Assembly (NCBI GenBank): GCA_019096065.1
Contig: JAGUCH010000002.1
Location: 13,404,501 to 13,468,500, forward strand
Direction: 5' to 3'
Length of the DNA stretch: 64,000 nucleotides
From: Paracyclopina nana
Lineage: Eukaryota > Arthropoda > Copepoda > Cyclopoida > Cyclopettidae
In this document: in pieces, positions 3,377 through 15,200 of the stretch
Layout of the letters: every line of letters starts with the position of its first letter
Position numbering within the stretch: position 1 is the stretch's first letter
Notes under the pieces: model-generated
What the model saw: only the letters and a program-made list of their open reading frames with translations
What the model was told of the DNA's origin: nothing
Database searches by the model: none
Translations under genes and position numbers: made by a program

Positions 3377-3590
3377 TTAAAACCTAGTGTTCTTGATATT
3401 CCTCCGCGACTTCGTTTTACTACGTTATAGGGTAACGCGTAGAGGCATCAGCTGACCCCATTTTGTTCAGTTCATGGGGATTTCTATGTAGTGAATTGAA
3501 CAAAATGAGTACAGCTGATTTTCTCTACGGTTCACCCTATTACGTAGTAAAACGAAGTCGCGGAGGAATATCTAGAACCCTATTAAAACC
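3377..3590. mobile_element. hAT-type fold-back MITE with 8-bp target duplication
   Basis: A 198-bp element (3385-3582) is an almost complete imperfect palindrome. Its ends are TAGTGTTCTTGATATTCC and, on the other strand, TAGGGTTCTAGATATTCC. It is flanked by an exact 8-bp direct repeat TTAAAACC at 3377-3384 and 3583-3590. An 8-bp duplication and a TAGTG-type terminus are the hallmarks of hAT elements. No transposase is encoded. A 51-bp relative with the same ends lies at 13250-13300. Confidence 0.85.
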
Positions 3591-3959: not shown

Positions 3960-6167
3960 TCAACTGGATTGTTGGCAGGCCTTTCTTGATTCGTCGCGTT
4001 TTTGCCTCAGCCTAGCATCCCATGCTGCAACCTCAGGCACTTTGAACACACCTTGAGTGGAGTCAAAAAAGTCTTGCAAAAAGTGGCCCTTCTTTGATTT
4101 CTCCTCATACTCGTAGGCTTGCATGACCATATCAAACTTGTCGAGGTCTTTCGCCAGCTTTGCATCGCTGTCACCAGGGTGCTGCTCTTCGTACCTCTCA
4201 AACGCATTGAAGAACTCCAATGCCATCCTGCCTGTAGGGAGTTCCTTGACTAATGACATCATTGCGTTTATTTCCCTGGTGTGTTTATCCTCAGCAGACA
4301 CATTATCGCTCGGAGTGAGATCTCCGACAATGCATTCAGCCATGTCATGCACTAGAGCAATAATGACAGCAGAGCCATTTAAAATTCTTTTGTCATGGAT
4401 GTCCTGAAAAGATTGCCTATCTTTGCATGATATATTTACGATATGCATACACATACCTCCTCAAAAAGCATAGCCATGACTGCCATTCTGAACATGTGAC
4501 TGGCAACTCTTTCAGGATCTCTGACACCAGATCGCACCCAACCCGTGCGAGGCAGCCTGGTGAGCTCGGAGATTTTCAGGATGAACGTGAGCAAATTCTC
4601 GAGTTCAGTCTCGTCTTGAAACACTTGAATTCTCTCCATGCCTGGGAAGCCGACTTCTTTCATCTTTTTCATCAGAATCTTCGTGTCTGCTCCCTTGCCA
4701 TCACTCTCTTTTTGAACTTCCTCCCACAAAAGAATGGCCTCTTCGAGCTCCAAAATCTTCCGGTAGGCTCGACCTTCTAAAGAATTGTGTTGTACTCCCC
4801 GACGTCCATTGACGTGCCAACAGTAGAGCTCATACAACTTAGCTGCTTTGTCCAGGGGCAGCAAGTCGCAAAGGAAATTTCGCACTTCGTTCAACTTGTC
4901 TTCCCACTCGGAATTCTGGTCGGGCTCTTTTCCTATACAAGTGAAAGCAGAAGAAAGGGCCACTTTCAACAGCCTTTTCCTATTGAGCTCCGGAGTGAGA
5001 CACATCACCATAATGGCCATTCGCCAAGCAGACTCTCCGTAGGTAGCATCCCAATGCTCTCCGCACGGCTCGTGCTTGGCTTTGCCCAAGGCCTTGAAGA
5101 ACTCCAGCAATTTGTCCACATTTGCATCGGCCAACAAACCTCCATTATTAAATACTGGTGACTTTTCAGGACCGAAGTCGTACCCTGCTTTCAGATAGAC
5201 ATTGAATAGTTTGTCCGTCTCCTTGACGACAAACGGAATCAGAGCAGATGCATAGTAGCTACTTTGCCTCTCAATATTCCTGATGACCTTAGTCAGCATG
5301 TGAGCTCTCTCCACACGAATGCCCGGGTCTTCATAATTGAGGTGCGTGAAATGCACGTGGAAGTGGAAGTAAGAAGGCTGGTAATGAATGTAGGCCCGTA
5401 TGCGCGAGTGATGCACACCATACTTGGCTTGGATAGCTTTAGTGCCGCTGTCAAGCATTTTCCGCAAGAGTGGCAAATGACGATTGTTGAGATCACGTAA
5501 TGATTTGATGCGTTTGTTGTGGACGATGCCGATCAAGTAGAGATCATCGATCTGCTTGCCACTCCACTTGAAATCGGGAAGAAAGATGAACCCAGACTCT
5601 GGATCAGGGTCCTCAAAAACAATGCGCTCTGTCTCCTTCTCATGGCTCAATATGTTATACACCCAATCCAACGAGAACTTTTCCGTTTTTATATAGGGCA
5701 AGGTGAGTGTCTGAAAATCACGAAAAAAACCAGCATTAATTGATGTCAGGCGAAGCTATAAGGTTATGGCGAAGTACCGCATAAAGTGCAGGAGTTTCGT
5801 TGATAATGTAAGAGGGTGCAGAGGTGTATTTGGCAATATGTTTGTCAGTCGCTGGATAAATGAGGTTGGCTTTGATGGAGTTGAGGGAAGGTTCCGTGAT
5901 GCATTCGTATTTTCCGTAGATGTCGTTAATGAACTCGGTCTTCAAAGTTGAGTTATGCAGCAGTGCCTGCACTTTCTCAGAGGTGAAAGGCATTTTCTCA
6001 AGCAAAAGAACAGCAGGAGATTCATTTTTGTCTGAGCTGAATCTGCCCTCAACAGTGATGAACTTGCTCTTGGAGTGTTCGCTCAACACTCTCGTGACTT
6101 GAAAGTCCTTCAAGTCTTTTAGGCCGTCTTCCGCTTCACATTTGGCCTTCTTGGCCTCGGATGCCAT
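3960..6167 (-). CDS. Fusion of scavenger decapping enzyme DcpS with two HDDC2-type HD domains
   Basis: Three exons (6167-5778, 5710-4457, 4403-3960) encode about 695 residues; the introns are 67 and 53 nt. Residues 1 to about 305 are DcpS: YPATDKH, the WVYNIL helix, and the HIT triad HFHVH at residues 246-250, which hydrolyses m7GpppN to m7GMP in the known enzyme. Residues about 326-480 align with HDDC2 but have lost the metal ligands: the HM site reads SAW and the HD pair reads SS, so this copy should be dead. Residues about 499-690 form a second, intact HDDC2 domain (His535, His567-Asp568, Glu571, then VGD), a 5'-nucleotidase family. The middle exon runs unbroken from the HIT motif through the pseudo-domain into the start of the active HD domain, so the fusion is in the coding frame, not a gene-prediction artefact. 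The coupling of activities is inferred. Confidence 0.87.
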
Positions 6168-6241
6168 CTAGAAGAGAAAACATGAGATGTATGTAAAGGC
6201 TTTGCAAAGACGTAAATTATTCGAGCAGTCAGGGGTGTATT

Positions 6242-9232: not shown

Positions 9233-12200
9233 TTAGCGTTTATTTCTTTTTCCTTTGGCTACAAGGGCTTTTAGTGGATCAGCCTGTCTCTGCTCGAACT
9301 TTCTTTTCGCCTTGGAAATCTTGTTGTGTTTGAACTTTTGGCCTTTCTGGTCACTCGAGGCCCTCGCGACTTTCCTCAAACTTCTTGGCACTATGTAATC
9401 GGGGACATTTCTCAACTGCGGCTGGTGCTTCACGGTATGCAAGGCTTTGTCGTGCCTCAGAACCTTGGCATCTTTGGGATTATCAGCCAAATGGGCTTGA
9501 AGCTTGGTTGAGTTGAGGATTTCTTGCCTGATCTCCTTGAGACGAGCTTCTCTAACCGCAATCCTGGTGACAGACCTCCATGCATCCATAGCTCTGTACT
9601 TGAACCCGTCCAACTCCTCAATCTTGAACTGATAAGGCTTGAACACATCTCCTTGATCACTACTGCCAAGGCCATCACGCTCTCTGAGCTCCCTTTCCGT
9701 TTGCTTAGCCCGTTCCAGCTCACGAGCCGCTATCAAGGACAAAGCCGAGCCTTTATTATTGCCCCTAGCAGTGCGTCCCACCCTGTGAATGTAGGAATCC
9801 GTGTCCACAGGGAAGTCAAAGTTGATGACATTAGAGACAAACTGGAAATCGATGCCACGAGCCACACCGGACTCTTTATCCTTCTCTCGCTTACTGTCTT
9901 GATTGTCAATGAGAAATTTCTCATCAGAGGCAACGATGACATCATATATACCCTTGTTGAATTGGGACACAATGTAACACCTCGATGCAGTTGGCAGCTC
10001 AGAGTTGAGCACACACACAGGGATGCCAAATTGCTCAAGGTACAGCTTCACTTGGTAGCATTTGTCAACGTTGTTCACGAAAATAATCGTCTTCCCCTGG
10101 ATGAGCTTGAGCTTGAACAAAGCGTAAATGAGGACAAACTTGTCCTCTTGCTCCATTAGAATCTTGTATTGGGTCAATTGGGAGGAATCTGGCAATGAGG
10201 GCTCTTCCAGCTTAAGGCTGACAGGGTTGTGCAACACTAGCTTTTTTAGCTTAGTCACATCCTCACTCAAAGTTGCACTGGTCAAAACAGCTTGATAGGT
10301 AGTAGGTAAGCTTGCCAGGATAGCTTTCAAGTCTTGCTCGTGGCCAAAAGAAAAGATGAGATCTGCTTCATCAATCACAAGCACTTCAAGTGATTCTTTC
10401 ATATCCAAGTGTCCAGCTTTGATGTGAGCAAGAACCCTAGAGGGAGTTCCCACAATGATGTCCGGCAAGTCTCCAACCAGAAGAGCCTTTTGAGCATCTA
10501 TGTCCACGGCTGTGGGAGATACATCCAAGCTTCTCACGACGCGCCCACAATTACGTGTCAGATCAGTGACAGCTTGGTGAATTTGACCGGCTAGTTCACG
10601 ACTTGGAGCTAGCAAAAGAGCTTTGATACTCTGTTCGCTTGCATTCTTCTTGGAATCGAGCACTTTTTGAATAGCCTGAAAACAATTGAATTGGGTTACT
10701 AGCTGCATACTTTTGAATGGGCTTTCATGCGGAATGAAAAAGTGAAGCGAAAGATAAATTACAGCTTCACTTGGATTTTCTTCAATTTATGAATGAGCGG
10801 GTCGCAAACCCGTTTAACTAGTTCACAGAGTGACTTTTAGAGGAACTGCTTATTTATCATTTTTAATTATATAACTAAGACGAATTTCCAGGAACGGCAA
10901 TGCATAATATTTCCATTATATGTACACAGTCAGAAGGCTGACAGCATGAACGTTTTGATAGATGACATATACCAGATTTGTTGTATTTTTAATCCTTGAA
11001 AGCTTATAATAGTTGACGATGACACGCGATACGTGGAATGGAAACCCTTCTCCAAACAGTACATTGAAACGAAGCGAAAAATGGTGTCTAGTACGAAGAA
11101 TGCACAAGGTTGAGGCGTCAACGACGTGATGCGGACAGCAGGGAGCGGGTGTTAAACAAAACCTTGACTTATAGCATCTTTCAAAAAAATCCTTTTTTAA
11201 CTTAGTACTAAATTGAAGCAGAAAAGCTAAAATGAACAAAGACCTCAATACTATAAGTAATAAGTACAGCCAGTTTAGCACTATTTGGGAGGTCGCATCG
11301 GCTATAGGCTAGCTCAAAACTCGTTCGGAACTATTCCGCTAGAAGGAGCTAAGATTTGTTGTTGGCGGAATTTGCGTAAGCGACCATGCGCTCAAAATAT
11401 ATTTTTGCCATTCGTTCATTCAAAGCGCCAAAATGTAAACATAATAAAAATATCCAAGCATGGATACACCTTCCCCCCCTACGCTGGCGCCATCAAATGG
11501 TGAAGTGGCAAAACGCCTGAACTAAATCTTTTAGCCTAGGCTATACTGGTGTAAGGCTAATCGGTAAAAGGCGAGATGGTGAAAGGCCAATTGGCCAAAG
11601 GCGAGATTGGTGAAAGGCTATGAAAAAAAGGCTAAATTGATAATGATACAAAAGTACAAATCATTTAATGACATCTATTTTGATCATTAAAGTTTTAGCA
11701 ATAAAAGTCAGCTGCATCTTTTAAATGTTGAGCGAAATAACTGGTTTTCATTGCCTAATTTTCCTCAACATTCGAAAAAAGCTTTAAATGTTACGGGTTT
11801 GCTTAGCTTTTTACCTTAGCTTAGCTTCTTCTGGCAAAATGAGAAATGCCTAGTGTCTTGAAAATAAAGTAACCTATTAGCCTAAAACCAAATAGCCTTT
11901 TGTCGAATAGCCTTTAACCAGTATACCCGTCGCATCCCTGTTGCCCCACACTGTTTGCCCCACGCCGTTTGCCTTCCTCCCATTTGCCTTTTTGAACTTT
12001 TCGACTCTTTGGACATTTGCCTTTTTGAACTTTTCGACTCTTAGGACATTTGCCATTTTGAACTTTTCGACTCTTTGGACATGTGCCTATTTCCTGTTTG
12101 CCTTCTTGGACGTTTGGCCCCCCTCCCATTTGCCCTTTAGGATATTTACCCCCCTCCCTTTCGCCTCTTTGGCCGTTTGCCTCTTTGGCCATTCGCCTCT

Positions 12201-15200
12201 TTGGCCATTTGCCTCTTTGGACGTTTGATTCTTTGCTTCTTATGACTATCTGAATGAATTGCAAACTATTTAGACCAGAATTGCGCGCCCCATCTACTTA
12301 GCTGCTGAACTATCCAGTTTGCTCAGTCAGCATTGAGATGCTCCATGTTTTCCTTATTGCTCAACCTTCTACAGTTTCTCACTTGTTACGATTACTTCTG
12401 AATCAATAACAACTACCTTGATACTTTGGATTTACTGCCCTATAATTGGCCTATAGGGCGAAACTAGAAGTACCATATTTCTGCTAGCGGATTTTAGTTG
12501 AAACCATGGAGGGCTGAGAACTGCCTTGTCTAGGTGGACTCGCAATTAAAATTGGCTGGTTCTCTGAATAGAGGTGCAGTATCTTTTGGTTCTCCTTGGT
12601 TCTCTAAACTACTTGTAGTTTAAAAGATTTCCTATGCTAAATATACCTATTTTCAAAGCCCTAGATTCAAAGATATTATCAAGTTTTTGAGGACTATTTC
12701 TAAAAATTAGGGACAATTCACTACTTTTGGGCTGGCTTTTTCCAAGTTTCTTAGCTTTTGCCATGCCAGTACAACAACTGTAGCATGGCCATCATGATTA
12801 CCAGAAAATACTTTTTCCTCAATTCATTGCAAGGAATGGCTCATTTGTCAAAAAACTGGCTCTTTTTATTGAACCCACACTAGATGAACTTGTTTGTTTT
12901 GATCTCACACAGAGTGGAGCTGCAAAAAGTAAGGCTATTTTTTCTTATTCGATCCTTCATGCTCAGGTCTGGATATGATGTGACTCATGATCCAAAATTT
13001 CTTGACTTTCATGAATCTTGCTCAAAATGGTACCATTCTGTTCCTTGAATCAATTGTACTGTTACAAGCTCAAAAAGAGAGCTTTCTTTGTCATTTTGTT
13101 GTCTACAACTCTAAAAAACTTTTTGTTTACTTTTTGTTTGAAGCGCTATTTTTGCCGCAATTGCTACGCACGCTTACTCGTACGCCAAAGAACCAAAAAT
13201 TCAGCACCATCTATTGCATTTTGTCTGTCTTTTGCTCCATTGATCTACCTAGTGTTCTAGATATAACTCCGCCCACTTCGCTCTTATATCTAGAACACTA
13301 GATCTACCATAATGTGTTCTTGTGTTCTACATTGAGTCCATCTGACTCTCCCTATCGGGATGATAAGGTGGCAAGTCATATGGGGTCTATCTGACCCTGG
13401 TCTATCCGACCAATCTGGCTCTTCAGCCATGTATTTTGCCTGCTACAGTAGCAGCTCACCAATGTATTTAGCGTCAGCTAAGGGGGCATTTCCAGCCGAA
13501 ACACAAACTGGCAAAAGTTTCAACTGTCTCTTATCTTTAATGAATTCAGACTGATTGGGAAGTAAATAAAGCACTCCAAAAGCAACCATTGCATTACTAC
13601 CGTCATAACTACCTTCTTAATTAGCTTGCTTGGTGGCATTTTGTAATATGTTTGATATTATGGTTTTGTCTGCCTCAATGTAGGCGCTGGAGCCTTTTTT
13701 TAACCTTGGGTGAGGCCAGACAACTTTAAAGTCTAACCAATGTTCGGCAAAGTTTCAAATGATCAACTGCATTATGCACAAAATGCTCCACATTCAAAAG
13801 AGGCAACTCAGGAAAGTGTCAAAAGAGGCAAATGTACAAAGAGGGAAACGTCTGACGACATTTTTGCAAGAGTTGCAGTAATGTCGACGACTTGAATGGA
13901 ATAATGACGACACTTTTGCCAGAGTTGCAGTGATCTAGACAACATCTATGGAATATCAAAGACACTTTAGCAGTTATCTTAGCGTCGACATTTACTGTGC
14001 ACCTACGACGACACTTATTTGATAGCTGATATTTTGTTGACTGTACCCACATAGTTGTTTTTTAGCAGAATTATAAATGTTACGAATCTTTGCCATAATT
14101 TGAGAGCCTTTTTGTCAAATAAAAAAAAAATTAAAGTTTGATGCAAAACGTTTTGAATTTCACAATACGACCTTTCAAGGCAACAGACCTAAAATATGTA
14201 CAGAGTTTTCAAAAAATACAAAATGTCAAGCTGCTCAAGACTGAACTATTGGGTGTCGACATTAATGCTGCATGAATTTCGGCACAAATGTTACTATGAC
14301 ACAAGTGTCGTCATTGGTGTATCATGGGAAAAAAATATTGTTGACATTACTGCAAAACTACGTTCAAAGCGTCGGCGCATACGCATCATTGTGTGTATTT
14401 TTGTCGACATCAATTTTTCAGACCATTTCATAAACAACCACTTTTGCAACTACCTATCAAAAAATGGCTGGAACTCAGTAAACTCGCCCAATTTATGAAT
14501 GAAATATCATGTCTTCTTCAGCATAGTCTTTTTAGTCAATAGGCCTAAAAAATTGGTCCTTCATGAAAATCTGTTTAGAAGCCAGACTCTTGGTATCAAG
14601 GTTTTCTGCTAGTTTTTTGTTCCAAAAGAAAAAATGTGCATGTTAACATCGAAACTTTTATTGGGACCGTAGATAAGTGCTTACCCACCATAATTACCTG
14701 GCAAAGCTATTGACTTAGAAGAGATGAATGGCTCAAAAAGTGCTCAACTGGCTGTACTTATTGCTCTTTGCTCATTTTCTATCATAGCTTCAAGGGGAAT
14801 GTGGTACTCAATCAAAATACGAATTTTTCAAGGATGCTATCTACAGCCATGATAAGGACTTAACGCCCGCTCTCTGTTGTCCACATCGTGGACGCCTAAA
14901 TCTAGTTTACATACGCAATCATTTTTTGAACAATCAGTCATTTTTGGGGGTGCCGTCACTAAGGCCTAAAATGAGGTGGGTTTTAGGATCTAAAATCAAA
15001 GTGGATTTTACGATCTAACAAATTGGGTTTTAAAGCCAACAGATTTGGCATCAGGGTATTAAGATCTAAGTGGAAAAATCAAATAAAGTTCATCATGGGT
15101 TTTAATATCTAAAGGCCTAGGTTTTATGATCTAACAGACCAAAAAAATATTCTCGAAATCATTTTGCCGACTAAAACCTGAGCAAGCATTACATGAAAAT

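What the first reader, a model, noticed from the sequence alone, without database searches (positions are those of the whole stretch)
3960..6167. DcpS fused to a dead and a live HDDC2 domain: a possible one-protein cap-scavenging pathway
Seen: one reading frame goes from the DcpS HIT triad (HFHVH) into an HDDC2-like domain whose metal ligands are lost (HM to SAW, HD to SS) and on into an intact HDDC2 domain. Known: DcpS releases m7GMP, and HDDC2 belongs to an HD-type 5'-nucleotidase family. Inference: the fusion could pass m7GMP on to be dephosphorylated, keeping it out of the nucleotide pool; the dead copy may act in dimerisation. I know of no description of this architecture, but I could not search.
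Basis: partly seen in the sequence, partly recalled or inferred. Interest (0 to 1): 0.88.

Follow-up and report, generated by a model that had tools for sequence, protein, structure and literature searches.

The report
Copepod cap-scavenging enzyme fused to nucleotidase
A gene in this small crustacean-like genome joins the enzyme that clears leftover mRNA caps to one dead and one intact copy of a nucleotide-dephosphorylating enzyme; the same three-part protein appears in several copepods, so it is a stable and apparently undescribed enzyme whose second reaction still has to be measured.

Summary
A minus-strand gene (6167-3960, three exons) encodes a 695-aa protein: DcpS, an HDDC2-like domain without metal ligands, and an intact HDDC2 domain. 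It is no gene-model artefact: 35 of 84 homologues found share the full architecture, including Tigriopus californicus, and for 30 of these the longest contig is 2.1-5.2 kb, as for transcripts. Lepeophtheirus salmonis has it too. The locus holds the genome's only DcpS_N and HD_3 matches. Trees fit one origin. The dead copy is not decaying: 25 of 148 columns are invariant in 36 proteins. The m7GMP hand-off is plausible but unproven. Against it: the live domain keeps the residues that make YfbR selective for deoxynucleotides; the genome has three cN-III-type matches, the family of the known m7GMP nucleotidase, one lacking the nucleophile; three fusion-like DcpS sequences end before the HD part. 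For it: DcpS makes a nucleoside monophosphate, HDDC2 enzymes consume them, and a trypanosome relative accepts ribonucleotides. Verdict: real, conserved, apparently undescribed; a new variant of known enzymes.

The parts
5778..6167 (-). exon 1: start codon and residues 1-130; DcpS N-terminal domain (residues 18-115)
   Evidence: frame, GT-AG intron, codon phase 0; PF05652, 74.9 bits
5711..5777 (-). intron 1 (67 bases, GT...AG)
   Evidence: relative P0001 aligns across the junction without a gap (read)
4457..5710 (-). exon 2: residues 131-548; DcpS C-terminal HIT domain, linker, whole dead HDDC2-like domain, first part of the live HDDC2 domain
   Evidence: (one match in the genome, no stops inside)
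5351..5365 (-). HIT triad HFHVH, residues 246-250
   Evidence: the three His kept in 47 of 47 relatives
4601..5173 (-). dead HDDC2-like domain with its flanks, residues 310-500 (H to S357, HD to S384-A385, D to L450)
   Evidence: counts
4404..4456 (-). intron 2 (53 bases, GT...AG), inside the live HD domain
   Evidence: the HD_3 match continues on both sides; P0001 aligns across without a gap
3960..4403 (-). exon 3: residues 549-695 and stop; HD dyad (H567 D568), last ligand D636, end of the live HDDC2 domain

Best explanation
A copepod-type bifunctional enzyme. Shown by sequence and model: a DcpS with its catalytic triad and most of its cap pocket, then a short, poorly ordered linker, then a tandem of a pseudo-HDDC2 and a live HDDC2. 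Inferred from family knowledge: the DcpS part hydrolyses leftover m7GpppN caps to m7GMP and NDP; the live HD part is a metal-dependent 5'-nucleotidase. Inferred and untested: besides ordinary deoxynucleoside monophosphates, the live site takes the m7GMP made next door and turns it into 7-methylguanosine, keeping it out of the nucleotide pool; the pseudo-HD copy is the built-in partner that replaces the second subunit of the usual HD nucleotidase dimer. The architecture is about 0.95 likely; the confidence below is for the whole mechanism including the m7GMP step.
For: Same architecture in 35 of 84 hits, plus two Lepeophtheirus proteins (P0036, P0039) with DcpS_C and HD_3. Of 16 active-site positions of human DcpS tabulated, 11 (N110, Y113, K142, W175, E185, D205, K207, Y273, H275, H277, H279) are invariant in the window and 35 relatives (roles recalled). 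The live ligands H, HD, D are kept in 37 of 37 relatives that span them (read from the table). This locus has the genome's only DcpS_N and only HD_3 matches; the four other DcpS_C hits look like aprataxin, HINT3, HINT1 and NitFhit (names by my reading). Trees fit one origin with joint inheritance of dead and live copies. DcpS yields m7GMP (PMC3946280 introduction); HD monophosphatases act on nucleoside monophosphates and YfbR does not read the base (PMC8177086 passages); the T. brucei relative also takes ribonucleotides (PMC5098729 section 15). Most characterised HD mono- and diphosphatases are dimers; in the model of P0001 residues 461-520 have block pLDDT 89-96, residues 311-320 (DcpS-dead linker) 51.
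Against: R518, W521, E571 and D576, aligned with YfbR R18, W19, E72 and D77, are invariant in the window and 35 relatives; W19 is said to exclude ribonucleotides, and m7GMP is one. Three UMPH-1 (cN-III) matches in the genome, two with an intact DxDxT motif, could do the m7GMP step; the best is nearest to cN-IIIA structures, with W-G and W-Y at the base-pocket positions by my reading. Five of the 16 DcpS positions vary, among them human L206 (F or Y in 35 of 36) and R145. Three unnamed DcpS proteins 64-73% identical to the DcpS half of fusion P0024 (P0195, P0196, P0197) end after DcpS without the dead motif: intron read-through, a short form or a separate gene, I cannot tell. One unnamed fusion-type protein (P0108) begins at the live domain. 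No base-reading change in the live domain was identified. No dimer could be modelled, and there are no activity data.
Confidence: 0.42

Rival explanations
1. Both active sites work but on unrelated substrates: DcpS on caps, HDDC2 on surplus deoxynucleoside monophosphates. The fusion gives co-expression and a fixed assembly (a DcpS dimer carrying two dead-live HD pairs), with no hand-off of m7GMP.
For: dNMP-type pocket residues invariant; YfbR and YGK1 are dNMP enzymes; only HD_3 match in the genome, so it must also do the ordinary HDDC2 job; cN-III genes present for m7GMP.
Against: Pure co-expression would not obviously keep the two enzymes fused, with all ligands intact, throughout both deep branches of the family. 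Both enzymes meet at nucleoside monophosphates.
Confidence: 0.35
2. The pseudo-HD domain has become a ligand-binding or regulatory module (for example for m7G nucleotides or dNMPs) that controls or feeds the live site or DcpS, as nucleotide-binding sites control HD triphosphatases such as SAMHD1.
For: Its old pocket region is remade and fixed rather than lost: KHEPxGxxW and GxxxWR invariant, 25 of 148 columns invariant, 55% mean pairwise identity against 60% for the live domain and 25% for the linker. 9 of the 25 invariant residues match the HDDC2 consensus and 16 do not (my count). Allosteric nucleotide sites in HD triphosphatases.
Against: The same conservation would follow from packing against the live domain. 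No ligand, no pocket geometry, no coordinates were available.
Confidence: 0.15
3. Artefact: merged gene models or an assembly join of neighbouring DcpS and HDDC2 genes.
For: Merges may exist in predicted proteomes; some DcpS hits carry unrelated domains, for example P0048 and P0052 of Orchesella. Three fusion-like DcpS sequences end before the HD part.
Against: One exon carries DcpS_C, the dead HD and the start of the live HD; for 30 of 35 full-length relatives the longest contig has 2095-5226 bases and two more (P0017, P0024) carry Trinity transcript names; Tigriopus and Lepeophtheirus have it.
Confidence: 0.02

Closest known systems
DcpS, scavenger decapping enzyme (human 1st0, 5osy; mouse 1vlr)
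   Different: Solved DcpS ends about where this protein continues with some 390 residues of HD domains; human L206 is F or Y in 35 of 36
HDDC2 / YGK1 / YfbR HD-type 5'-nucleotidases (4dmb, 5yox, 2pau)
   Different: Fused behind DcpS and a dead copy; 36 of 36 differ from 84 of 84 standalone HDDC2 at S511, R618 and an extra D626, and 35 of 36 differ from most at 516, 616 and 639
cN-IIIB, 7-methylguanosine phosphate-specific 5'-nucleotidase (Drosophila 4nv0)
   Same: Would carry out the same reaction if the live HD domain takes m7GMP
   Different: Unrelated HAD fold, a separate protein, with an aromatic slot for the base; this genome has its own UMPH-1 matches
RelA/SpoT
   Same: An HD domain fused to another nucleotide-processing domain, catalytically dead in RelA (PMC8177086 passages)
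   Different: Other chemistry; dead and live HD lie in separate paralogues, not in one chain

Membership tests
DcpS | N-terminal DcpS domain followed by HIT domain | tested here: met
   PF05652 74.9 bits (cut-off 25) and PF11969 100.8 bits (cut-off 24)
DcpS | HIT triad HxHxH | tested here: met
   HFHVH in the window; three His in 47 of 47 relatives
DcpS | cap-pocket residues of human DcpS (choice and roles recalled) | tested here: met
   N110, Y113, K142, W175, E185, D205, K207, Y273 equivalents invariant in window and 35 relatives; R145, S172, D187, L206 and S272 vary (L206 is F 25, Y 10, L 1). Met for the core, not for every position.
DcpS | domain-swapped dimer; hydrolysis of m7GpppN | not testable with these tools
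   no complex modelling, no assay
HDDC2 / HD_3 5'-nucleotidase (live domain) | HD_3 fold and profile | tested here: met
HDDC2 / HD_3 5'-nucleotidase (live domain) | H...HD...D metal ligands | tested here: met
   H535, H567, D568, D636; kept in 37 of 37 relatives that span them
HDDC2 / HD_3 5'-nucleotidase (live domain) | R, W, E, D pocket residues of YfbR | tested here: met
   R518, W521, E571, D576; R and W rest on an alignment with a two-residue gap, and one of the profile alignments to YfbR placed this stretch without it
HDDC2 / HD_3 5'-nucleotidase (live domain) | metal-dependent nucleoside monophosphatase activity | not testable with these tools
   no assay
HDDC2 catalytic family (middle domain) | HDDC2 fold or profile | tested here: met
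   no Pfam match
HDDC2 catalytic family (middle domain) | H...HD...D metal ligands | tested here: not met
   First H: S in 45 of 47, G and T in one each; second H: S in 45 of 46, A in one; D: S 27, A 18, G 1 of 46; last D: L 40, V 1, M 1 of 42 (read, register). A pseudoenzyme by sequence.
cN-IIIB m7GMP nucleotidase | HAD (UMPH-1) domain | tested here: not met
   Pfam gives HD_3 and no UMPH-1 in this protein; only a functional comparison

The most novel reading that the evidence does not exclude
A complete cap-disposal line in one chain: DcpS makes m7GMP, the remodelled pseudo-HD domain binds the methylated nucleotide and hands it to, or switches on, the live HD domain, which has changed from a deoxynucleotidase to an m7GMP nucleotidase. 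This would be a second, non-HAD route for destroying m7GMP, invented once in copepods.
Probability: 0.15. Interest if true: 0.85.

Novelty: new variant of a known kind. Interest (0 to 1): 0.6.

Why it matters
Until cN-IIIB was characterised it was not known which activity degrades m7GMP after RNA decay (PMC3946280 introduction). A lineage that has welded its only DcpS to its only HDDC2 makes a direct test possible: does an HD nucleotidase act on the DcpS product? It also offers a conserved pseudoenzyme side by side with its live counterpart, in marine copepods and in the salmon louse.

Tried and rejected
Gene-model merge or assembly error: rejected (single exon, 35 full-length relatives). Separate DcpS or HDDC2 elsewhere in the genome: none found at E 0.001 in six-frame searches that score only the best candidates; the other four DcpS_C hits read as aprataxin, HINT3, HINT1 and NitFhit. 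Loss of cN-III, which would have made the fusion the sole m7GMP nucleotidase: rejected, three UMPH-1 matches, though one has lost the nucleophile.

Tandem dead-live HD without DcpS as an ancestor: not seen. Of 174 hits (120 listed) I examined the first 40 new ones, P0085-P0124. The first 24 have the fusion-type live domain (S or T at 511 in 24; R at 618 in 21, two gaps, one L at a cut-off end); most also hold part of the dead domain or of the linker behind it, so they look like pieces of the fusion, but P0108 starts at the live domain and I cannot exclude separate genes. P0109-P0124 are single HDDC2 (G511 and E618 in 16 of 16). Of 307 proteins fetched, 55 carry KHEPxG; the species-named ones among them are Tigriopus and Lepeophtheirus only. 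Of 120 listed DcpS hits (633 in all) I looked at 12 tails; P0195-P0197 end without the dead motif.

Spliced-leader idea: the fusion's ATG follows TTTTCTCTTCTAG, 74 bases after the stop of the gene upstream, and copepod caps could then be trimethylated. Put aside: copepod spliced leaders were found in calanoids (PMC4664967, start of abstract), with no significant hits in cyclopoid or harpacticoid data sets (one passage seen), and Tigriopus, a harpacticoid (recalled), has the fusion.

An early reading of the last dead ligand as D to E was dropped for D to L450 after the profile alignment. Two stray His in truncated relatives (P0041, P0044) inflate the live-ligand counts; I use the 37 rows that really span the domain. 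Profile comparison of the dead domain with YfbR alone gave nothing, and with the live domain only probability 19. The whole-model VIA run did not test the middle domain, so it was folded alone. Foldseek and VIA lists show shared fold only. Barnacles and malacostracans were not specifically tested.

Full report

Not chance and not an artefact. A search with the whole protein (only the 7997 candidates sharing most words were scored) gave 84 hits: 35 with DcpS_N, DcpS_C and HD_3 (P0001-P0035; 44-65% identity over 94-99% of the query), two Lepeophtheirus salmonis proteins with DcpS_C and HD_3 (P0036, P0039), ten that carry the dead motif but stop before or within the live domain (P0037, P0038, P0040-P0047), and 37 DcpS proteins without HD. 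Named carriers: Tigriopus californicus, L. salmonis, and by a fragment Caligus clemensi. For 30 of the 35 the longest contig has 2095-5226 bases and two more have Trinity names, which for a gene with introns points to transcripts (inference). In the own genome (92 Mb, 10 contigs) the fusion locus holds the only DcpS_N and only HD_3 matches; the other four DcpS_C matches look like different HIT proteins. Named non-copepod arthropods in the lists, such as Daphnia, Artemia and many insects, have DcpS of ordinary length, and Nilaparvata and a spider have single HDDC2.

Results against a strict fusion. Three unnamed DcpS proteins, 64-73% identical to the DcpS half of fusion P0024, end after DcpS without the dead motif (P0195, P0196, P0197); P0195 runs into unrelated sequence, as an intron read-through would. 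P0108 is a fusion-type live domain that starts at the live domain. These may be fragments, but a short DcpS form or separate genes in some species are not excluded.

Evolution. The tree of 37 fusions has two deep groups, of 16 (window, P0001, Tigriopus, Lepeophtheirus) and 21 (unnamed), 100/100. In a tree of 12 dead, 12 live and 13 standalone HDDC2 domains, live is one group among animal HDDC2 (100/100) and dead is one group on a very long branch (100/100). The branch between the two groups of carriers reappears in the dead half (100/100) and in the live half (89/96); the deepest order inside each half is weakly resolved. This fits one origin before the groups split. The long branch leaves open how the dead copy arose.

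The dead copy is constrained. Mean pairwise identity in the 36 rows is 48% for DcpS_N, 62% for DcpS_C, 25% for the linker, 55% for the dead and 60% for the live domain; 25 of 148 dead-domain columns are invariant. Of these 25, 9 equal the HDDC2 consensus (including K342, P345, the Trp of RTGW and R360) and 16 do not but are fixed (my count). So it has a job: structural partner, ligand site, or both.

Mechanism. Family knowledge gives the first step: DcpS releases m7GMP (PMC3946280, introduction read in full). HD monophosphatases dephosphorylate nucleoside monophosphates, and most characterised ones are dimers; YfbR does not read the base but excludes ribose through W19 (PMC8177086, passages). 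The T. brucei relative also takes ribonucleotides (PMC5098729 section 15). The live domain keeps R, W, E and D of the YfbR pocket, so dNMP activity is the safe prediction and m7GMP the interesting one. The genome's three UMPH-1 matches mean that m7GMP has another possible consumer: two keep the DxDxT motif, the third reads NFDHT and has lost the nucleophilic Asp (motif). The best one is nearest to cN-IIIA and has W-G and W-Y where fly cN-IIIB has F-G and W-W (positions by my reading). I put the hand-off at 0.42, two independent activities at 0.35, a regulatory pseudo-domain at 0.15.

Comparison and novelty. Each active part is an ordinary member of a known family; the architecture is what is new. 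Paper searches DcpS+HDDC2, DcpS+m7GMP+nucleotidase, HDDC2+nucleotidase, DcpS/fusion protein/copepod (15 of 255 hits listed), YfbR+deoxyribonucleotidase (10 of 22), DcpS+copepod, m7GpppX diphosphatase with copepod genera (8 of 1,374; the term itself in none of the 8), and DcpS/HD domain/bifunctional (8 of 9) showed no description of the fusion in what was listed. The library lacks most subscription papers, so this is weak evidence of absence. Databases already hold the protein under names such as 'm7GpppX diphosphatase'.

Limits. No activity data, no RNA reads, no multimer model, no coordinates to place conserved residues, and few species names.

Noticed in passing
6168-6241 (minus strand): The fusion's start codon is preceded directly by TTTTCTCTTCTAG, a 3' splice-acceptor-like stretch, only 74 bases after the stop of an EAF7-domain (MRGBP-like) gene (6727-6242; Pfam) on the same strand: an operon with trans-splicing, or a 5'-UTR intron, is possible.
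   Followed up: partly
3385-3582: Between the cation-ATPase gene and the fusion gene: a 60-base inverted repeat, 90% complementary, with a second 28-base inverted repeat nested inside; looks like a MITE.
   Followed up: partly
7849-7526 (minus strand): An open frame of 107 aa from an ATG lies on the strand opposite an ERGIC-like gene (name by my reading), where that gene appears to have an intron; no Pfam match.
   Followed up: partly
11981-12235: Tandem repeats of 33, 31 and 16 bases in a row.
   Followed up: no
live HD domain, residues 511, 618, 626 (exons 2 and 3, 4457-5710 and 3960-4403): 36 of 36 fusion live domains differ from 84 of 84 standalone HDDC2 at S511 (G), R618 (E) and an extra D626; the charge reversal at 618 may mark the contact with the dead domain.
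   Followed up: partly
L011, L012: Two cN-III (UMPH-1) genes lie side by side on contig 4 of the genome; the 309-aa frame has lost the first, nucleophilic Asp of the DxDxT motif, reading NFDHT, so it may be a second pseudoenzyme in nucleotide disposal (motif as given).
   Followed up: partly
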